Source: Gammaproteobacteria bacterium
Lineage (GTDB): Bacteria > Pseudomonadota > Gammaproteobacteria > Thiomicrospirales > Thiomicrospiraceae
Direction: 5' to 3'
Assembly: GCA_013153955.1 (NCBI GenBank)
Contig: JAADDM010000271.1
Coordinates: 1-33,214 of the forward strand
Length of the DNA stretch: 33,214 bases
Each line of letters begins with the position of its first letter. Within the stretch, counting starts at the first letter, position 1. Of this stretch, positions 9,794 to 29,408 are shown piece by piece. The notes under the pieces are model-generated. The model was not told where the DNA came from and did not search any database. It was given only the letters and a program-made list of their open reading frames with translations. Made by a program: the position numbers and the translations under genes.

Positions 9794-10876
9794 TTAAGCG
9801 CTTACTTGATGATCTTCATCTGAAAAGCCAAATGAAGCTCGAATCTGCTTTTGATCTGCTGTAAGTGCTGCGACATGTGATTTAGGGGCAGGGTCATCAC
9901 CTGATGACTGTTGAGTACCTAATGCACTGATTGGTGTAGCATTTTCGATAAAGTTTGTCAGTGCTGCCATATCACTATTACCTAAGCTGGTTGCCCATGC
10001 TTGTTGCGCTGGCAAAAGATGGCCAGATGCCAAAGCATTATCAACGGTCGTTGTTACAGATGATGACGCCTGCTTATTTGTTAGCGCTACAACTTGTGCT
10101 TGCAACTCGGCTACCATTGAAACTGGTGCATATTCAGAAGGGTCAGGAGTAGATACTGCTTCAACTTTAGCTGTTAAAGCAACAATGGACGCTTGCGCTT
10201 CTGTATTCGCAGATTGAAGAGCCGTTAAAGCCGCAAGCGCTTCTTCTTCGGTTGTGTTTTCGGGCATGTTTAGCGCAATGAGCAGTGTCTTCAAGTCCAT
10301 TGGATTGTCCTCAGGTTGATTAGATTGATTGGTAAGCTGCTGAAAGTTTTCGAGCGTTAATTTGGCAAGGTTCTCCATGCCATCTATCGCTGGATGGTTT
10401 GTGATTGCAGCCATAATAATGTCAAGTACGTGCCCAGTTTTAGGGTCGTAAATCATGACGGGAGAGATGTAGCGGTATTCGCCATCCAAAATCATGCGTT
10501 CGGCAGTAGGTGTCCAGGTGACATTAGTCGCCCACAGACCTGATTCACGCCATTGCAATTTTGAAAACCAACCCGCAGCAGGGGCCGGTTGGCCGTTTTG
10601 TTCTTTTAAGAGAGTTTGGTGTTCGTAATCGATGACTCGATCATTTGAGTAACTCGTGTATTCAATGAGCTTTTTAGCAATAGACTCATCGATAAACCAG
10701 CCGTCCGTTAGGTCAACAGGGCGGCCATCTTTGGCTTTAAAGAAACCAACAGGGGTCAGTTGGATTTCGTTTGGGGCTTTTTGGTTTTCAACAATTAAGT
10801 TGATAGATAGCGCAGCGACCGCAACAGGTTGCGATGGGCTAGATGTTTTGGAATATTGGGGTGTTTTTGTTTTCAT
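9794..10876 (-). CDS. Mu gpI-like prohead protease/scaffold
   Basis: 360 aa; IQLTPVGFFKAKDGRPVDLTDGWFIDE...VIDYEHQTLLKEQNGQPAPAAGWFSKL...GEYRYISPVMIYDPKTGHVLDIIMAAITNHPAIDGM is characteristic of the Mu I protease family; Gln/Ala-rich C-terminal scaffold region. Confidence 0.92.
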   Translation of the reverse strand: MKTKTPQYSKTSSPSQPVAVAALSINLIVENQKAPNEIQLTPVGFFKAKDGRPVDLTDGWFIDESIAKKLIEYTSYSNDRVIDYEHQTLLKEQNGQPAPAAGWFSKLQWRESGLWATNVTWTPTAERMILDGEYRYISPVMIYDPKTGHVLDIIMAAITNHPAIDGMENLAKLTLENFQQLTNQSNQPEDNPMDLKTLLIALNMPENTTEEEALAALTALQSANTEAQASIVALTAKVEAVSTPDPSEYAPVSMVAELQAQVVALTNKQASSSVTTTVDNALASGHLLPAQQAWATSLGNSDMAALTNFIENATPISALGTQQSSGDDPAPKSHVAALTADQKQIRASFGFSDEDHQVSA

Positions 10877-10931: not shown

Positions 10932-12956
10932 TTAGCTTGCTTCTTCAAGATCATCTATCTGCACTGATTCTGTGTACTGAGCATATTTTTCTTTTAAAAA
11001 ACGCAGACTATCTTCTTGTGAGGCATTTATATCTAGATGTTTTTTAAGAAAATCAAGGCGATGACTGGCTTGAGCAAAAAGCATTGACCATGTTACAGCT
11101 TTTATTTTATATGACATGTTTCCAACTGTATTTTGTTCAATTAAGCCTGAGCTATCATTTTTCAACTTTGATCTAACAAAGTTGTCTGAAGCGTAATCAT
11201 CACCAATAATCCAAAATTCCCAAGTACTTTTTACAGTTTTAAACCTAGGATCGTTAACTATCGCGATTTGATAATCCTCGACTTGTCTGTATTGTTTTTG
11301 TCCGATATGTTCTGTAGGCCTTTTTAGCTCTATCACAAGATAGCTGATTTCATCAGGTTTAGAATTCCCTAAAGATCTTGTTAACATTAAATCAACAATA
11401 CCGTTAGTGCCATCAATTCTTTTAACTGGTTTATCAATAACAACATCAGTTATATTTCTACTTTTAAGGTGTCCTTCCAACACTTTTGTGAGTGATTGAT
11501 CATTAACCGTAAGAGTAAACTGTTCGCCGAAAATCCAAGTATTGTCGGCCAAAATTTTGTGAAGTTGTGATCTCTCTTTGATGTGTTTGGCAATATCTTT
11601 ATCGTAAATTAACTCTTTAAGGGCAGTAATAAATTTAATTCGATCTGAAACTTCCTTAGAGGTCTTAATCATATTAGACAGAGATGATTCTTCTAGCAGT
11701 TGTGCTAGTTCTTTTTGTTGGTTTTCAGGTAAATCTAGAACTTCCTTGAAAATTCGTTTTAGTGTTGTGTCACCGCTTTCAATTGCTTGTCTAAGCATGT
11801 GCAATTGAAATTTTTTAGTTTTAGGGGCCTCGTCATTAAAACCTGGCAAACTTTCTGTAACGGTAATGGCAAGAATATCAAATAACTCTTGCTCTGCTTT
11901 TTCGACAGGGGCTAGGCCTTCATGAGTTTTTAATATCTCATCTGCGGAATAGGGATATATACCTGCACTGCGCCAATCTTCAAAAATAGTCTTGTGGTCT
12001 TCCAGTTTTCTCTGCTTAAAATGTTCTTTAAGAGTCTTGATTGCCTCTTCAATATTTCTATTCACGTCATTACTTAGCCCACTTAGGCTGAGTAAGTTTT
12101 GATGGTTTAAAACTCTAAATAGATCAGATGAAAGGTAGGCTGTATAGGAATAATCACCGATACTTCTAATCTGCTTATCATATTCTTGAAGTGGTACTTC
12201 GTCTTTGGAGCAAAGCCATACTTCTTTATGGCTACCAATTTCGGCAGCCCATTCAACTATTTTTAGTGACAAGGGATATTTTGAACCTTCATATTCGATA
12301 TCATCTAACTCGATATCTATTTCGTCTGCTATATATAGTGACGGGTCTATACGAGTGCCATTAATGGTTAAGTTGATATCAGAATGGTTCTTTAGATAGA
12401 GAGAGAAAACAGGAGCAATTTTTTGAATCAATTTTGTAGGGTCTTCTAGGAATTCAAACTGTTTGAATAACTCATCCACCACAACAGTGACGCCAGTTGG
12501 TGAGCTTTTTTTATTATGTTCATCAAACTCAAAGTCAGTTGGGTTGTCGGCTTTTCCAGAGATTTTAAATGAGAATGTATCATCAGATTTATCTTTGTAA
12601 GTTGACGTCCAATTCATTACTCGCCCTAAAGCATAACCTTTAAACCTTCCATGTCCTTCACTGCCATGTAACTTTCTACCTAAGAGAGTGGTGTGTGTGT
12701 TTTTTTTCCAAGATGCACCTAGGTTTCCAAAAAGAAGTTCTTTTTTGCCCCAATTGATCCCTGTTCCATTATCTGTAATGACAATTTTTTTATCGCCAGG
12801 TAAAAGACCTGATGATGGAAATGTAACAGTAACAATTTTTGAATCAGCATCAAGAGCATTCCAAATCATCTCACAGATGGCTTTATCAGGCTGTGCACGC
12901 TTGATTTTATTCATATAGTCATTAGTGATTTGTACTTTTACGATATTTGAAGTCAT
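10932..12956 (-). CDS. GHKL-type ATPase fused to a C-terminal PD-(D/E)XK-like nuclease domain; probable cargo/defence gene
   Basis: 674 aa. N-box CEMIWNALDADS, G1 ITDNGTGI, G2 GSEGHGRFKGYALG (HSP90/MutL/MORC-like ATPase fold). C-terminal GIVDLMLTRSLGNSKPDEISYLVIELKRP fits D-(X)n-(E)XK nuclease core. Not part of the Mu core gene set. Confidence 0.8.
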   Translation of the reverse strand: MTSNIVKVQITNDYMNKIKRAQPDKAICEMIWNALDADSKIVTVTFPSSGLLPGDKKIVITDNGTGINWGKKELLFGNLGASWKKNTHTTLLGRKLHGSEGHGRFKGYALGRVMNWTSTYKDKSDDTFSFKISGKADNPTDFEFDEHNKKSSPTGVTVVVDELFKQFEFLEDPTKLIQKIAPVFSLYLKNHSDINLTINGTRIDPSLYIADEIDIELDDIEYEGSKYPLSLKIVEWAAEIGSHKEVWLCSKDEVPLQEYDKQIRSIGDYSYTAYLSSDLFRVLNHQNLLSLSGLSNDVNRNIEEAIKTLKEHFKQRKLEDHKTIFEDWRSAGIYPYSADEILKTHEGLAPVEKAEQELFDILAITVTESLPGFNDEAPKTKKFQLHMLRQAIESGDTTLKRIFKEVLDLPENQQKELAQLLEESSLSNMIKTSKEVSDRIKFITALKELIYDKDIAKHIKERSQLHKILADNTWIFGEQFTLTVNDQSLTKVLEGHLKSRNITDVVIDKPVKRIDGTNGIVDLMLTRSLGNSKPDEISYLVIELKRPTEHIGQKQYRQVEDYQIAIVNDPRFKTVKSTWEFWIIGDDYASDNFVRSKLKNDSSGLIEQNTVGNMSYKIKAVTWSMLFAQASHRLDFLKKHLDINASQEDSLRFLKEKYAQYTESVQIDDLEEAS

Positions 12957-13137
12957 TTAAAAATCTGCCTTAGCGTTTGATATTGGTAATACTACTGCAT
13001 TATCAGCCCAACCTCTACTCAATAGATGCGCTAAACACCGTTTAAATTTTCCAGTAAACGTTTAAGTCTTTTTAATCTATGGCAATGTATAGGTTCTGCA
13101 CTAAAGCCGCTGTATGGGCTTTATTTTCGTAGTAGGT

Positions 13138-13593
13138 TTAATCAAATGCAAGGGACAAATGATCTGCAACTATGTCGAGTATATCTGTTTCATCTTTTGG
13201 CGTCAGACCAAGAAAAGGTCGAGATGGGATGCCGCTTGGTTTGTTGAAACTTCCTGCGTCTGAACCAAACTGATGGATGGCTGCATATTTACGATCGGAA
13301 CCAAACTCCAAACCTTTCCCTCCATTGACGAGTTGGTAGGTTAATTCTCGAAATAAATCACCTGATTCAATAAGCACATTATCTTTGTTTCGTTTTTTAC
13401 GTTTAACGGTTAGATATTTTAGTGGGGTGAACTTTTGACCATGTATATCATTGCCTGCTGTTAACCTATCGCGAGTATTATTGAGCAGAATCTCTCCCAT
13501 ATCTAAAAACACAGGCTCTAAACTTGTAGTAAGCTGGTTTAATTCACTAAAGGCTTGTGTAACTTGTGTTAAATCTACCTTTACGCCGGCCAT
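13138..13593 (-). CDS. Phage virion morphogenesis protein (Mu gpG-like)
   Basis: 151 aa; ILLNNTRDRLTAGNDIHGQKFTPLKYLTVKRKKRNKDNVLIESGDLFRELTYQ...GSDRKYAAIHQFG is characteristic of this family. Confidence 0.92.
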   Translation of the reverse strand: MAGVKVDLTQVTQAFSELNQLTTSLEPVFLDMGEILLNNTRDRLTAGNDIHGQKFTPLKYLTVKRKKRNKDNVLIESGDLFRELTYQLVNGGKGLEFGSDRKYAAIHQFGSDAGSFNKPSGIPSRPFLGLTPKDETDILDIVADHLSLAFD

Positions 13594-13713: not shown

Positions 13714-14946
13714 CTACTCTTCTTCTACAATCTTCCCGTATATCAACTTTCCATTTCTCTGACGATTTATATACTTTAAATCTGATGTTGGAATCATTGT
13801 CCAAGATTCTAAAATACCTTTATTTGCTTGTGCGCTGATAAGTAGAACTTTACCTCGGCCGATATCAAATGCTTTAACAATTCTGGTGCGTAGCGCGACT
13901 TTACCTGTCGCTTGATGTTCGTCAAAGTTCATCCATACTTCAAATGGGTCCTCTAAGGTATCTAGTAAAAGTGGTAAATAAATAGATCTATTAGGATCTA
14001 AATGTTCCGCTAAACTTTGTGCATTGACCAAAACCGGCAGGCCTTTTACATCAATAATTCTTTCAGTAGCACCTAATTGAGATTCAATTAATAGCGCCAT
14101 TTCAGCCACTGTTAGTCCCTTATCGGTTAATGACTGCTTGGGTTGAGCAAGTGGCAATTTTCTTGGACGACCTAATTGTTGGTAATCATGTTTAATAATG
14201 GATTGCCAAACCTTTGCGCCTGATGCTTTAAAATCGGCCATAGCTGTTTCGCTAAGCTGCTGACCCCATGCTGCTTTTCCAGGATTGTAAGCAAAACCAG
14301 CATCAACTCCGTCTGTGACTTGTATGACTCTTGGATTGGTGGTCACCCCAATCGTTTTATCTGTCCACTCTACTTTTGGAGAGTTTGCCAAGGTTAGGCC
14401 TTGAGCATCCAGTTCTCGCTGTGAGAGAGTTTTAGCGTAACATTGACAACCCCAACCATTGGGCGGGTAATGCGTATTCCACCAAGGATCATCTACAGAC
14501 AACACCATACCGTGCCAACCTAAGTGCTGAGGGCGTGCGTTTTCGACTGCAATAGAGTGCTGATATTGCAAGTATGGGCGAGTTCGTTTGACAGCTTGCA
14601 TTTGCTGGTAACGGCCTGCGGCGTAGGCCATTCTTGTATTTGTTTCGTAGATTATTCTTGAGCGCCAATTTCGACCTCCGTTATAACTCCAACCATGTTT
14701 TTTGACAGTTGCATCAAAGTCTTTTCTAAAGTCTTCAAGCGTGCTGCCACCTTCAACAGCTTTGAGTACTGCCGATTGAAAGTCTGCTAATATTTCATCT
14801 TGTATTGCACCAGCAACCACAAATGCTTTTGCATGCTGTACTTGCCAAATATCCGCATAAGTTTCTGTAGGAAGGGCGAGTTTATTTTTAACAAAGTCAA
14901 TTTTTTGCTTAAAAATGATTGAACCGTACTGTGTTTTACTTGCCAT
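13714..14946 (-). CDS. Phage head morphogenesis protein (Mu gp30/F-like)
   Basis: 410 aa; RSRIIYETNTRMAYAAGRYQQMQAVKRTRPYLQYQHSIAVENARPQHLGWHGMVLSVDDPWWNTHYPPNGWGCQCYAKTLS is the diagnostic minor head protein signature. Confidence 0.95.
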   Translation of the reverse strand: MASKTQYGSIIFKQKIDFVKNKLALPTETYADIWQVQHAKAFVVAGAIQDEILADFQSAVLKAVEGGSTLEDFRKDFDATVKKHGWSYNGGRNWRSRIIYETNTRMAYAAGRYQQMQAVKRTRPYLQYQHSIAVENARPQHLGWHGMVLSVDDPWWNTHYPPNGWGCQCYAKTLSQRELDAQGLTLANSPKVEWTDKTIGVTTNPRVIQVTDGVDAGFAYNPGKAAWGQQLSETAMADFKASGAKVWQSIIKHDYQQLGRPRKLPLAQPKQSLTDKGLTVAEMALLIESQLGATERIIDVKGLPVLVNAQSLAEHLDPNRSIYLPLLLDTLEDPFEVWMNFDEHQATGKVALRTRIVKAFDIGRGKVLLISAQANKGILESWTMIPTSDLKYINRQRNGKLIYGKIVEEE

Positions 14947-25983: not shown

Positions 25984-26724
25984 TTATCCACTTATTCCAT
26001 TTCGAATAGCCGCCTGTCCAGTGTAAAGTTCTTTTTTACCCCACATGCTCATGTCAATTTCAGCCCAGCCGTTCTGCTTTGCCGTGTCGTTGATATGATT
26101 TAAGTTTACGCAGATCCGTCGTGTGACATTGCGGCTTGCTTCAACTAAACTGATTAATAAATCATCGTGTACTTTTACGTCGGGAGCATAGATATTAGCG
26201 AGCGTTCTTGCGTCTTCTAGAGAAGACGGCTGGGCTTGTACCCAAGCGAGCACACGATTGTGAAAGCGTTCCCATCTTTTGAGTTTGGCTGGCAAATGTT
26301 CTTCGCCAATTAGCAAAATAGTCCCAAAACTGCTTTCGTAGATATCTCTGACGATTTCGATAATTTTCTTTTCAACGAGAAAATCAGCTTCATCAATAAT
26401 CAACGGGCGGCTTGATAATGCGACTTCTTGAGAAATCTGGTCGACCATTTCGTAGATTGTGGCGGCAGGAGAGATTCCCATCTCCATTAAAATAGCTTTT
26501 AAAAACGCTTTCCGTGTCCAGGCGCTTTTGCATTGCACGTAATATGCGCGATATTTATTAGCACTCCAAGTTGCGGCAAAAGTTTTCCCCCATCCTGAGG
26601 GGCCGTATAACACGACGATGCCAGGTAGGCTCTCTCCGCGCGTCAGAGAGCGAGTAATCGCTTGAGAGCATAGCGCGACGTTTTGTAACGGGGCGATTGT
26701 GTTTCCAATGCTTTGTGTTAACAT
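25984..26724 (-). CDS. MuB-like target selection ATPase (AAA+)
   Basis: GIVVLYGPSGWGKTFAATW Walker A and SSRPLIIDEADFLV Walker B; directly downstream of the MuA-like transposase. Start trimmed to MLTQSIGN. Confidence 0.9.
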   Translation of the reverse strand: MLTQSIGNTIAPLQNVALCSQAITRSLTRGESLPGIVVLYGPSGWGKTFAATWSANKYRAYYVQCKSAWTRKAFLKAILMEMGISPAATIYEMVDQISQEVALSSRPLIIDEADFLVEKKIIEIVRDIYESSFGTILLIGEEHLPAKLKRWERFHNRVLAWVQAQPSSLEDARTLANIYAPDVKVHDDLLISLVEASRNVTRRICVNLNHINDTAKQNGWAEIDMSMWGKKELYTGQAAIRNGISG

Positions 26725-26794
26725 TAACAGTACTTCCTTTGCATTTTTATGCATTTAATGCTTGTTTAAATGGCGGTTTAAACCAGCGTTTTCA

Positions 26795-28933
26795 TTAAAG
26801 TGAGCTTGTTTCCAAGCCCAATCCAAAGTCTTCAAAAAACTCTTTCATATTTGTGTATTCGGGCGTATTTTCATAAGCGTTGTAAAACCTTTGATCTTGC
26901 TCAGAGACACTTTGCCCAGTGACCATTTTTTGCTCAATTCGTAAGAATTTTCTGTGTGTTTCTTGCGGGTCTGTTACTACATGCGTCACCGCAGTCCTTA
27001 AAGGTTTAGACTGTGCGATATTATTACTTTGTAAGCTAGCGGCTTGTGCAGCAGCCTCTAGGTTGTCATTGGTATAAACTGTTGTGGATTTTGGCAGCAT
27101 AGTGATATTGTTTACTTGGCGTTTTGATTCAAGAATCTCTTCAGCAAGCCCTTTAACCTTTTGTCGGCTTTTCATGCCTCGGATTTCTTTCTTAGCCTGA
27201 GCAATATTTTTAAGCGCGTTCTGTTTAGCTTGACGTGCAATTTCCTGCCTTTTTATACCGACGAAACGGGTGTCTTCAGCAATACATATAAACTTACCGT
27301 TTTGAAATACATGAATTGTTCCAATGTCAACGGGGTCTTTCCGTATATTGACTCTTTCAGTCGTCATATGACCCAGTTCAGGAGCTATATAAGTAAATCC
27401 ATCTAAGCGTATTCCTTCTTTACCGATCGTTCTCTCGCCAACTTCAGCTAATAAAATATCTAGCGCACGTTCGTTTTGAATCATGCTGATAGGTGCTGTC
27501 CATTCGCTGACCATTTGAAATGGGGTCTTGCCGTTTATGCCGTCACCCGTATGGCTGTTATGCATGTAGATGTTATCTATCCATTCGTCTACAAACTTTT
27601 GCAGATCTTGAGACGACATATCGATATCGATTACGCTGCCTTTTTTGAAGAGACGTTCACTAAATTGTTTGCGGTCTTCAATAACAGATCGTTCTGCAAC
27701 GTTGTGTCCGATGAATCCAGGCATGATCTCTAAAAGACCGTGCGAAAAGGTTCTAAAGAATCTTTCTATATGCGGCTTTTCCCAGGGTGAAAAGGGTGCT
27801 GAGATATTTTGTTCAATTCCCAGTGAGTAAAATGCAGTTTTCATCTGTACAGAGACATAGTCAGCACCGTTGTCGGTCTTGACTATTTCCGGTACTCCCC
27901 ATTCTAGCAAGCAGTCACGCATTAACTTAGAGACTGAAGCGGCCGTTGAACTCTTTGAAACTAGCAATTTGACGCGTCGACTGTAGACATCAATAGCGCC
28001 AATCAGGTTGTATCTCCCGTCTGTTAGCATAATATCTGCAGGTGTTGAATCTAGTTCCCACTTTTCATTTAAAGCTGCAACACCAACCGTACCTTGGGCG
28101 GGCATGTATTTATTTTTCCACTTGTCAGGATTAGTGATCGCAGAAAATAATTGGGCATTTTCTGTTTTGTAAGATTTAACCCATCTTTCTAAAGAACGCT
28201 TTGATGGAACATCAGTTTCAGTACATTTAAATCGCGATTCAATCGCTTCAAATAGCTGTGAGATATAGATATGTGGGTATTCATAAATAGCGGCAGTTAT
28301 AAACTCACGCAGAATCTTTTGACGATCAATTTTGCTACTACCTTTGCGGTGCCCGTGCTTGTCTATAATGTTTTCTGGTTTTTTTTCCCAGTTATTGAGC
28401 GTTGTGGGATGTAGGTTTTCGTTAATATGATCTTTGATCCAAATGTAATCGTCTGGAATGTTAAGTTGGCCTGACGACCAGAGCGCTAAGAATTCTTGAG
28501 TCGCTTTTGTTTTGCATAGCTTTGAATTTTTAACAAATTCGCTTCTCATGCTTAATAGTAAAATTTTGCTTTCGGCACGAGCTTTTTTAGAGCCTGAAAG
28601 GCCTGCAATTTGTTCAGTTATTTTTGCTCTTCGCTTAGTCGTTATAGTGAGCTTAATTGAGTTTTTAACAGCAAGCGTGCGAGCAAATTCGGTAGCTTGT
28701 TTATTAGCGGATTTTTTTGCCTTGGTCAGCTGTGCTTCGGCTGCCAATTGTGCAAAGTGATTTTGTGTTTCAACTGGCAAGCTATCGATGTGGTATTCCT
28801 TACCTCCACCTTTGCCTTTGCGTGGGCGTGATAGCCAGTTTTCTTTTTTTGCTTTTACATTAATGTTTTGCGGGGTTGTTGGAAGTCCCGGTAGCCCAGA
28901 TAACTCTTGAACACTGTGATATTGGTTATTCAT
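26795..28933 (-). CDS. MuA-like DDE transposase
   Basis: MNNQYHSVQELSGLPGLPTTPQNINVKAKKENWLSRPRKGKGGGKEY N-terminal Mu DNA-binding domain; catalytic WELDSTPADIML, VKTDNGADYVS, PHIERFFRTFSHGLLE; C-terminal Mu transposase domain. Start trimmed from 28978 to the ATG at 28933. Confidence 0.95.
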   Translation of the reverse strand: MNNQYHSVQELSGLPGLPTTPQNINVKAKKENWLSRPRKGKGGGKEYHIDSLPVETQNHFAQLAAEAQLTKAKKSANKQATEFARTLAVKNSIKLTITTKRRAKITEQIAGLSGSKKARAESKILLLSMRSEFVKNSKLCKTKATQEFLALWSSGQLNIPDDYIWIKDHINENLHPTTLNNWEKKPENIIDKHGHRKGSSKIDRQKILREFITAAIYEYPHIYISQLFEAIESRFKCTETDVPSKRSLERWVKSYKTENAQLFSAITNPDKWKNKYMPAQGTVGVAALNEKWELDSTPADIMLTDGRYNLIGAIDVYSRRVKLLVSKSSTAASVSKLMRDCLLEWGVPEIVKTDNGADYVSVQMKTAFYSLGIEQNISAPFSPWEKPHIERFFRTFSHGLLEIMPGFIGHNVAERSVIEDRKQFSERLFKKGSVIDIDMSSQDLQKFVDEWIDNIYMHNSHTGDGINGKTPFQMVSEWTAPISMIQNERALDILLAEVGERTIGKEGIRLDGFTYIAPELGHMTTERVNIRKDPVDIGTIHVFQNGKFICIAEDTRFVGIKRQEIARQAKQNALKNIAQAKKEIRGMKSRQKVKGLAEEILESKRQVNNITMLPKSTTVYTNDNLEAAAQAASLQSNNIAQSKPLRTAVTHVVTDPQETHRKFLRIEQKMVTGQSVSEQDQRFYNAYENTPEYTNMKEFFEDFGLGLETSSL

Positions 28934-29408
28934 TATTAACTCCAAAATCAAATTCAGGCATAGCAGACTTTTGTACATTCTCTCTATGAAATGCTAAGTC
29001 ATTCATAGAGCAAGTTAATGCTGCCGTGGTTTCTTCTGTAGTAGCCTCGCCTGTTGCAAACTTAATTAACAAGCTCATAGCATGATTAAAGGTGCCTTGC
29101 ATTTTCATTACAGAGACCTCTTTCAATGACTTTCCTGTAGGCATATTGATTAGCAATTTGCTATCACTAGATGCTAGATACACGCTTATAAAATTTGCAC
29201 CGCATACATATTCAAAACTGTGTAATTTGTGGACTGGCATAGAGCCATTTTTCATCCACTTATATAAAAGTGACTCATCTTCTAAGCCCATCAACTCAGC
29301 AATGCGTGCAACGGATAAATTTCTCTTTGTTTTGCCATGCTCTTTTACCAACCAAAAAGCCTCGGTAAGAGTTTTAGCATGAGCATTTTTCCAGTTTATA
29401 TAACTCAT
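28926..29408 (-). CDS. Early phage regulator-like protein
   Basis: MSYINWKNAHAKTLTEAFWLVKEHGKTKRNLSVARIAELMGLEDESLLYKWMKNGSMPVHKLHSFEYVCGANFISVYLA; HTH-like; between Ner-like and MuA-like genes. Start trimmed from 29453. Confidence 0.65.
   Translation of the reverse strand: MSYINWKNAHAKTLTEAFWLVKEHGKTKRNLSVARIAELMGLEDESLLYKWMKNGSMPVHKLHSFEYVCGANFISVYLASSDSKLLINMPTGKSLKEVSVMKMQGTFNHAMSLLIKFATGEATTEETTAALTCSMNDLAFHRENVQKSAMPEFDFGVNNE

What the first reader, a model, noticed from the sequence alone, without database searches (positions are those of the whole stretch)
10932..12956. GHKL-ATPase/PD-(D/E)XK-like single-gene cargo inserted between the gpG and protease genes
In Mu-type phages the virion morphogenesis gene and the protease gene are consecutive; here a 674-aa non-structural protein separates them. 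The N-terminal half has GHKL ATPase motifs (CEMIWNALDADS, ITDNGTGI, GSEGHGRFKGYALG) like HSP90/MutL/MORC proteins. The C-terminal part has GIVDLMLTRS...YLVIELKRP, the D...ExK core of restriction-like nucleases, also seen in DUF4263/Shedu-type effectors. An ATP-gated clamp joined to a nuclease is a plausible one-protein sensor/effector for superinfection exclusion or host-DNA attack. I do not recognise it as a named system.
Basis: partly seen in the sequence, partly recalled or inferred. Interest (0 to 1): 0.82.

Follow-up and report, generated by a model that had tools for sequence, protein, structure and literature searches.

The report
Prophage-borne ATPase-nuclease in anti-CRISPR slot
A Mu-like virus dormant in a bacterial genome carries one extra gene for an ATP-driven DNA-cutting protein, almost certainly a member of an already described family (paraMORC3) that resembles a proven anti-virus enzyme of cholera bacteria, and it sits in the spot where related viruses keep swappable genes such as CRISPR blockers.

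Summary
In detail: a 674-aa ORF (10932-12956, minus strand) lies between gpG and the protease of a Mu-like prophage. Its N-terminal half is a GHKL ATPase. Its C-terminal half is a PD-(D/E)XK nuclease. The catalytic residues (E29, N33, D36, D62, G98/101/103; D522, E543, K545, Q558, Y562) are unchanged in 106 aligned homologues. Homologues occur on plasmids, chromosomes and phages of many phyla, several beside other defence genes.

The architecture is not new. It is the paraMORC3 family (GHKL + S5 + E-D-ExK nuclease) described in 2008. In 2025 a V. cholerae protein of the same layout, VcSduA, was shown to restrict phages, and it needs both active sites. Formal membership in Shedu (the DUF4263 family) is not supported here by Pfam, profile-profile or fold search.

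The insertion site is a known kind of accessory slot. It is a short non-coding gap in Mu, SuMu and others. It holds anti-CRISPR genes in D3112 and JBD26. In two prophages of the same bacterial genus the equivalent place holds other, unrelated AT-rich genes.

Verdict: a new, divergent, prophage-borne member of a known kind, most likely a single-gene anti-phage restriction system that protects the lysogen. Function is inferred, not shown.

The parts
10932..12956 (-). 674-aa GHKL-ATPase/PD-(D/E)XK nuclease gene (paraMORC3-type), the cargo; GC 35.3% against 40-48% for most other phage genes
12387..12956 (-). GHKL ATPase domain, about residues 1-190
   Evidence: Pfam HATPase_c_3 residues 24-125; model and Foldseek
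12840..12872 (-). N box / motif I EMIWNALDADS (E29, N33, D36 invariant in 106/106)
   Evidence: E29 corresponds in motif to the essential E27 of VcSduA (PMC12137116)
12756..12773 (-). G1 motif DNGTGI (D62, G64 invariant; G66 105/106)
12624..12665 (-). G2/ATP-lid motif GSEGHGRFKGYALG (G98, G101, G103, R104 invariant)
12087..12374 (-). S5-like transducer region, about residues 195-290 (beta strands after the GHKL fold)
   Evidence: secondary structure of the model; the MutL/MORC3/TopoVI-B alignments extend over this part; boundary is approximate
11604..12071 (-). helical linker/middle region, about residues 296-451
11034..11594 (-). PD-(D/E)XK nuclease domain, about residues 455-641
11523..11525 (-). 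nuclease residue E478 (E in 97, D in 7 of 106)
11391..11393 (-). nuclease residue D522 (106/106)
11322..11330 (-). nuclease ExK motif E543-L544-K545 (106/106)
   Evidence: K545 corresponds in motif to the essential K557 of VcSduA
11271..11285 (-). QxxxY motif Q558/Y562, RecB-like (106/106)
12957..13137 (-). 181-bp non-coding gap between gpG and the cargo start; no sigma-70-like promoter above chance found on the minus strand here
13138..13593 (-). gpG, virion morphogenesis (tail completion) protein: left neighbour of the slot in gene order
9794..10876 (-). Mu-like head maturation protease (gpI): right neighbour of the slot in gene order
13714..14946 (-). gpF minor head protein with C-terminal PBECR2 domain
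25984..28978 (-). MuB-like ATPase (25984-26754) and MuA-like transposase (26795-28978): identify the element as a transposable prophage

Best explanation
This is a divergent, prophage-carried member of the paraMORC3 group of GHKL-ATPase/nuclease proteins, acquired into the accessory slot of a Mu-like prophage. It most likely acts as a one-protein anti-phage restriction system that benefits the lysogen (and so the prophage) by blocking superinfection. Inferred mechanism: the protein dimerises through its GHKL domains. ATP binding closes the clamp formed by the GHKL and S5/helical parts on incoming DNA, and this licenses the C-terminal PD-(D/E)XK nuclease to cut it. There is no partner gene in the slot, so target choice (DNA ends, topology, replication structures or a phage factor) must be intrinsic. 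Shown here: domains, conserved active sites, slot, low GC, mobility. Inferred: dimer clamp, ATP gating, anti-phage effect, target.
For: Domains: GHKL and PD-(D/E)XK nuclease. Active-site residues invariant in 106 homologues. Same layout as paraMORC3 (PMC2292703) and as VcSduA, whose E27A and K557A mutants lose phage defence and which restricts phage while preserving host viability (PMC12137116). Homologues beside defence genes: Drt2 and a Dcm/LlaMI pair (Psychrobacter plasmid); type ISP R-M enzyme with 4-bp overlap (Phaeobacter); abortive-infection protein and a helicase (Bradyrhizobium); a true SduA (1.4e-130), an HNH nuclease and a candidate defence ankyrin protein (Pseudoxanthomonas); type I R-M genes among direct neighbours. 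Mobile: plasmids, Pasteurella phages of two kinds, 27 viral contigs; at least 9 changes of the viral/non-viral label forced on the tree. Slot: empty in Mu, SuMu, Mannheimia AP2, JBD25 and Vibrio ZX4290; anti-CRISPRs in D3112 and JBD26; other low-GC cargo in two same-genus prophages.
Against: No phenotype is known for this protein or any close relative; the nearest homologues are 41-43% identical. The VcSduA sequence could not be obtained; its E-to-K spacing (530) lies outside this family's 500-518, so it may be a sister group. Most direct neighbours of the genomic homologues are not recognised defence genes. No obvious promoter for lysogenic expression was found. Self-DNA protection is unexplained.
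Confidence: 0.72

Rival explanations
1. Phage-serving weapon: the gene is transcribed with the late head genes and acts during the lytic cycle, for example cutting host or competitor DNA or helping against host restriction, instead of protecting the lysogen.
For: Same strand as the late operon, between two late genes; no clear own promoter found; the same slot carries counter-defence (anti-CRISPR) genes in D3112-type phages (PMC4378225).
Against: Homologues on plasmids and chromosomes stand alone or near defence genes; in another Mu-like phage type the homologue sits elsewhere and on the opposite strand to the late genes (L117); the closest experimentally tested architecture is a host defence (PMC12137116).
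Confidence: 0.13
2. It is a true Shedu (type I-D) member: the C-terminal domain is DUF4263 and acts like SduA nucleases. (This concerns the family label, so it does not exclude the best explanation.)
For: VcSduA authors class the GHKL+nuclease layout as Shedu type I-D (PMC12137116); weak PADLOC SduA hit, 2.3e-4.
Against: No DUF4263/SduA_C (PF14082) hit in the window protein or in 60 members at E 0.1; hhalign of the nuclease alignment against seven Gammaproteobacterial SduA proteins gives 1% probability; solved Shedu proteins exist in the PDB copy but are not among the top 50 fold matches; the weak PADLOC match covers residues 386-523, mostly upstream of the ExK motif.
Confidence: 0.25
3. A structural or assembly protein of this phage lineage.
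For: Position inside the head gene cluster only.
Against: Absent from other Mu-like phages and from same-genus prophages with 66-74% identical terminase and capsid; homologues lie on plasmids; enzyme motifs fully conserved.
Confidence: 0.01
4. Passenger DNA without a function in this prophage, recently captured and on its way out.
For: Low GC, long terminal branch (1.33) in the family tree.
Against: ORF intact and every active-site residue kept; no frameshift or stop.
Confidence: 0.08

Closest known systems
paraMORC3 family (Iyer, Abhiman & Aravind 2008, PMC2292703)
   Same: N-terminal GHKL ATPase, S5-type transducer, additional C-terminal RecB-like restriction-endonuclease-fold domain with E-D-ExK; sporadic distribution; some members stand alone, others lie in R-M operons.
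   Different: This member is in a Mu-like prophage slot; direct sequence comparison with the 2008 members was not possible because their accessions could not be read.
VcSduA of Vibrio cholerae WASA lineage (PMC12137116)
   Same: One gene, GHKL ATPase plus PD-(D/E)XK nuclease, motif I glutamate near residue 27-29 and ExK lysine near the C-terminus (K557 there, K545 here).
   Different: E-to-K spacing 530 against 516 here and 500-518 in the homologues collected; VcSduA is assigned DUF4263, not detected here; VcSduA is on a genomic island, this one in a prophage; no phenotype known here.
Classical Shedu (SduA, DUF4263/SduA_C)
   Same: PD-(D/E)XK nuclease used in single-gene defence; weak PADLOC SduA score.
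   Different: No SduA_C match, no profile-profile similarity, no GHKL domain in classical SduA.
MutL / MORC / topoisomerase VI-B GHKL ATPases
   Same: GHKL plus S5 clamp engine, ATP motifs.
   Different: Here fused to a restriction-type nuclease; similarity limited to the ATPase half.
Anti-CRISPR accessory slot (RGP G) of D3112-like Mu phages (PMC4378225)
   Same: Position between gpG and the protease/scaffold gene, low GC, variable content.
   Different: Cargo here is a 2-kb ATPase-nuclease, not small Acr genes.
phrog_6203
   Same: Full-length match, 4e-70; shows related proteins were already in phage databases.
   Different: Listed there as unknown function.

Membership tests
paraMORC3 | N-terminal GHKL ATPase with intact ATP-binding motifs | tested here: met
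   HATPase_c_3 2e-12 above cut-off; motif residues invariant in 106 homologues
paraMORC3 | S5 domain following the GHKL domain | tested here: inconclusive
   The model matches MutL, MORC3 and TopoVI-B across GHKL plus the following domain, but no S5 family model was run on its own
paraMORC3 | C-terminal restriction-endonuclease-fold domain with E-D-ExK, RecB-like | tested here: met
   E478, D522, E543-x-K545 and Q558xxxY562 conserved; PD-(D/E)XK fold matches; HSDR_N_2 in 50/60 members
paraMORC3 | Sequence homology to the 2008 founding members | not testable with these tools
   Member accessions are in figures/additional files that could not be read
Shedu (SduA, DUF4263) | DUF4263/SduA_C domain | tested here: not met
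   No PF14082 hit in the window protein or 60 members nor in the genome; hhalign against seven SduA proteins 1%
Shedu (SduA, DUF4263) | Nuclease core structurally closest to solved Shedu proteins | tested here: not met
   Shedu entries 8ps4 and 8ti9 are in the PDB copy but not in the top 50 matches; MspJI and McrC lead
VcSduA-type anti-phage ATPase-nuclease | GHKL + PD-(D/E)XK in one protein with the essential E (motif I) and K (ExK) | tested here: met
   E29 and K545 present and invariant
VcSduA-type anti-phage ATPase-nuclease | Direct sequence orthology to VcSduA | not testable with these tools
   Sequence not available; spacing differs, 516 against 530
VcSduA-type anti-phage ATPase-nuclease | Restricts phages, needs both active sites | not testable with these tools
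   Needs bench work
Mu-like (transposable) prophage | MuA transposase, MuB, GemA, Mu-type head genes | tested here: met
gpG-protease accessory slot of Mu-like phages | Site empty in some relatives and variably occupied in others | tested here: met

The most novel reading that the evidence does not exclude
The anti-CRISPR slot of Mu-like phages is a general conflict-gene depot in this host genus, used also for large host-protecting systems: here a stand-alone, partner-free ATP-gated nuclease, distinct from Shedu, that recognises competitor phage DNA by its physical state. The different low-GC genes in the same place of sister prophages would then be further, undescribed defence or counter-defence genes.
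Probability: 0.3. Interest if true: 0.6.

Novelty: new member of a known kind. Interest (0 to 1): 0.4.

Why it matters
It shows that the slot known for anti-CRISPRs in D3112-type phages also carries a full host-defence-type enzyme in another Mu-like lineage, and that sister prophages keep other unknown genes there. That makes the gpG-protease slot a practical place to look for new defence and counter-defence genes. The protein also gives a divergent example for testing whether GHKL+nuclease proteins really belong to Shedu or form a separate restriction family.

Tried and rejected
Shedu filing: rejected as formal membership. Tiamat or Mza filing: PADLOC TmtA and MzaB match only a few family members weakly (4.6e-5 and 5e-4) and not the window protein. 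Structural gene: rejected. Finding VcSduA by its residue spacing in 228 genomes of the Vibrio genus: three kinds of GHKL proteins turned up, none with a spacing of 530. Protease-based search of viral contigs for empty sites returned only the same contig; the phage collection and same-genus genomes gave the answer instead. A promoter/terminator scan gave nothing above chance for promoters. The PADLOC/Pfam neighbour survey gave only family counts, so no enrichment figure with a control could be computed.

Full report
What is there. The window is most of a Mu-like transposable prophage: MuA transposase (26795-28978), MuB (25984-26754), GemA, a CI-type repressor, tape measure and Mu-type head genes. 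It lies in a fragmented 2.04-Mb gammaproteobacterial genome; the class follows because a 'same class' genome, G071, has a contig of the same length as a named Pseudoxanthomonas daejeonensis contig. Between gpG (13138-13593) and the protease (9794-10876) lies a 674-aa ORF, 10932-12956, all on the minus strand. Its GC (35.3%) is the lowest among the 17 main phage genes measured, which range otherwise from 39.5 to 48.2%.

Domains. Residues 24-125 match HATPase_c_3 (2e-12). A profile of 60 relatives finds MutL, TopoVI-B and MORC structures by sequence, and the AlphaFold2 model (pLDDT 85) finds TRAP1, MutL, MORC3 and TopoVI-B by fold. For the C-terminal part alone (residues 436-674, pLDDT 91, pTM 0.87) the best fold matches are restriction-type nucleases: MspJI, McrC, Avs3, EcoO109I, HamA, SgrAI. 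Scores are weak (best E 1e-3) but the list is consistent. HSDR_N_2 matches 50 of 60 family members. The window protein itself gives no significant Pfam hit there.

Conservation. In 106 distinct full-length homologues (29-43% identity) E29, N33, D36, D62, G64, G98, G101, G103, D522, E543, K545, Q558 and Y562 never change; E478 is E in 97 and D in 7. That is a complete GHKL N/G1/G2 set and a complete E-D-ExK-QxxxY nuclease core, so the ORF is a preserved two-enzyme protein and not a chance reading.

Distribution and context. Homologues were found in 46 plasmid records, two Pasteurella phages of different type, 27 viral contigs, at least 376 candidate places in one-per-species genomes over many phyla, and 7 of 274 gammaproteobacterial genomes. 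phrog_6203 already covers it full length. Contexts include Drt2 plus an R-M pair, a type ISP R-M enzyme overlapping by 4 bp, an abortive-infection gene and a helicase, and a true SduA next to an HNH nuclease and ankyrin candidate-defence gene. Many homologues simply stand alone, as Iyer et al. reported for part of paraMORC3. The tree forces at least nine changes between viral and non-viral carriage, so phages have taken up or lost this gene repeatedly; the window protein is a long lone branch.

The slot. In Mu the gpG-protease gap is 196 bp and holds the annotated gyrase cut site. It is also short and empty in SuMu, Mannheimia AP2, JBD25 and Vibrio ZX4290. In JBD26 it holds I-E and I-F anti-CRISPRs, in D3112 AcrF2, in R24 four small ORFs. 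PMC4378225 describes this as a low-GC region of genomic plasticity. In two prophages of the same bacterial genus as the window (terminase 73-74%, capsid 66-68% identical), the place just upstream of the protease carries unrelated genes: a 342-aa plus a 172-aa ORF in one, a 330-aa ORF in the other. These have no Pfam or PADLOC identity and low GC (38.9% against about 53%; 35.1% against about 45%).

Known or new. The layout is paraMORC3 (PMC2292703). An experimentally tested protein of the same layout is VcSduA: it protects against Drexlerviridae in E. coli and phage X29 in V. cholerae, and loses activity in E27A and K557A (PMC12137116). Its authors place it in Shedu type I-D on the basis of DUF4263. 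Here the DUF4263/SduA_C test fails: no Pfam hit, 1% hhalign probability against a set of SduA proteins, and no Shedu structure in the top fold matches although such structures are in the library. The VcSduA sequence could not be obtained. Its motif spacing (530) lies outside the family range (500-518), so VcSduA may be a sister group. I therefore file this as paraMORC3-like, working like VcSduA, and not as a formal Shedu.

How it most likely works. By analogy with MutL/MORC/TopoVI engines and VcSduA, the protein would dimerise, close on DNA upon ATP binding and cut with the C-terminal nuclease. The lysogen would be protected against other phages. The dimer, gating, target and phenotype are inferences. 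The main rival is a late-expressed weapon used during lysis, suggested by its strand and position. It is disfavoured because relatives live as solo genes on plasmids and chromosomes, and because in another Mu-like phage the gene sits between the head and transposition modules on the strand opposite to those genes (L117).

Score. Real, clear and well conserved, but a member of a described kind. The interesting residue is the slot: a large defence-type enzyme in the anti-CRISPR site, and unknown genes in the same place of sister prophages.

Noticed in passing
window 13714-14946 (-): The gpF minor head protein carries a C-terminal PBECR2 (Barnase/EndoU/ColicinE5-D/RelE-like nuclease) domain (E 2.5e-22), so a second possible effector domain lies two genes away from the cargo.
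   Followed up: no
L184:8712-10261 and L185:7724-8716: In two same-genus Mu-like prophages the place upstream of the protease holds unrelated low-GC ORFs (342+172 aa; 330 aa) with no Pfam or PADLOC match: candidates for unknown defence or counter-defence genes.
   Followed up: partly
L187:5249-13261: Pseudoxanthomonas daejeonensis island with an SRAP protein, a true Shedu SduA, the paraMORC3 homologue, an HNH nuclease with DUF7669 and an ankyrin protein matching PDC-M72A.
   Followed up: partly
L117 and L114: Homologues in a different Mu-like phage type lie near the MuB/MuA module, on the strand opposite to it (in L117 between the terminase/portal genes and MuB): an independent insertion point.
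   Followed up: partly
L154 (G199 contig 39), 663-aa frame: A different GHKL protein with a C-terminal ExK nuclease and a weak SduA_C match: possibly closer to VcSduA than the window protein is.
   Followed up: partly
H7 and H16 (plasmid records): Two plasmid homologues look damaged by insertion sequences: a Methylobacterium one with ISMpo7 inside the match and a Paracoccus yeei one cut short before an IS3 element.
   Followed up: no
window 13102-13123: Palindrome TAAAGCC...GGCTTTA in the gap between gpG and the cargo, terminator-like only for the plus strand; role unknown.
   Followed up: no
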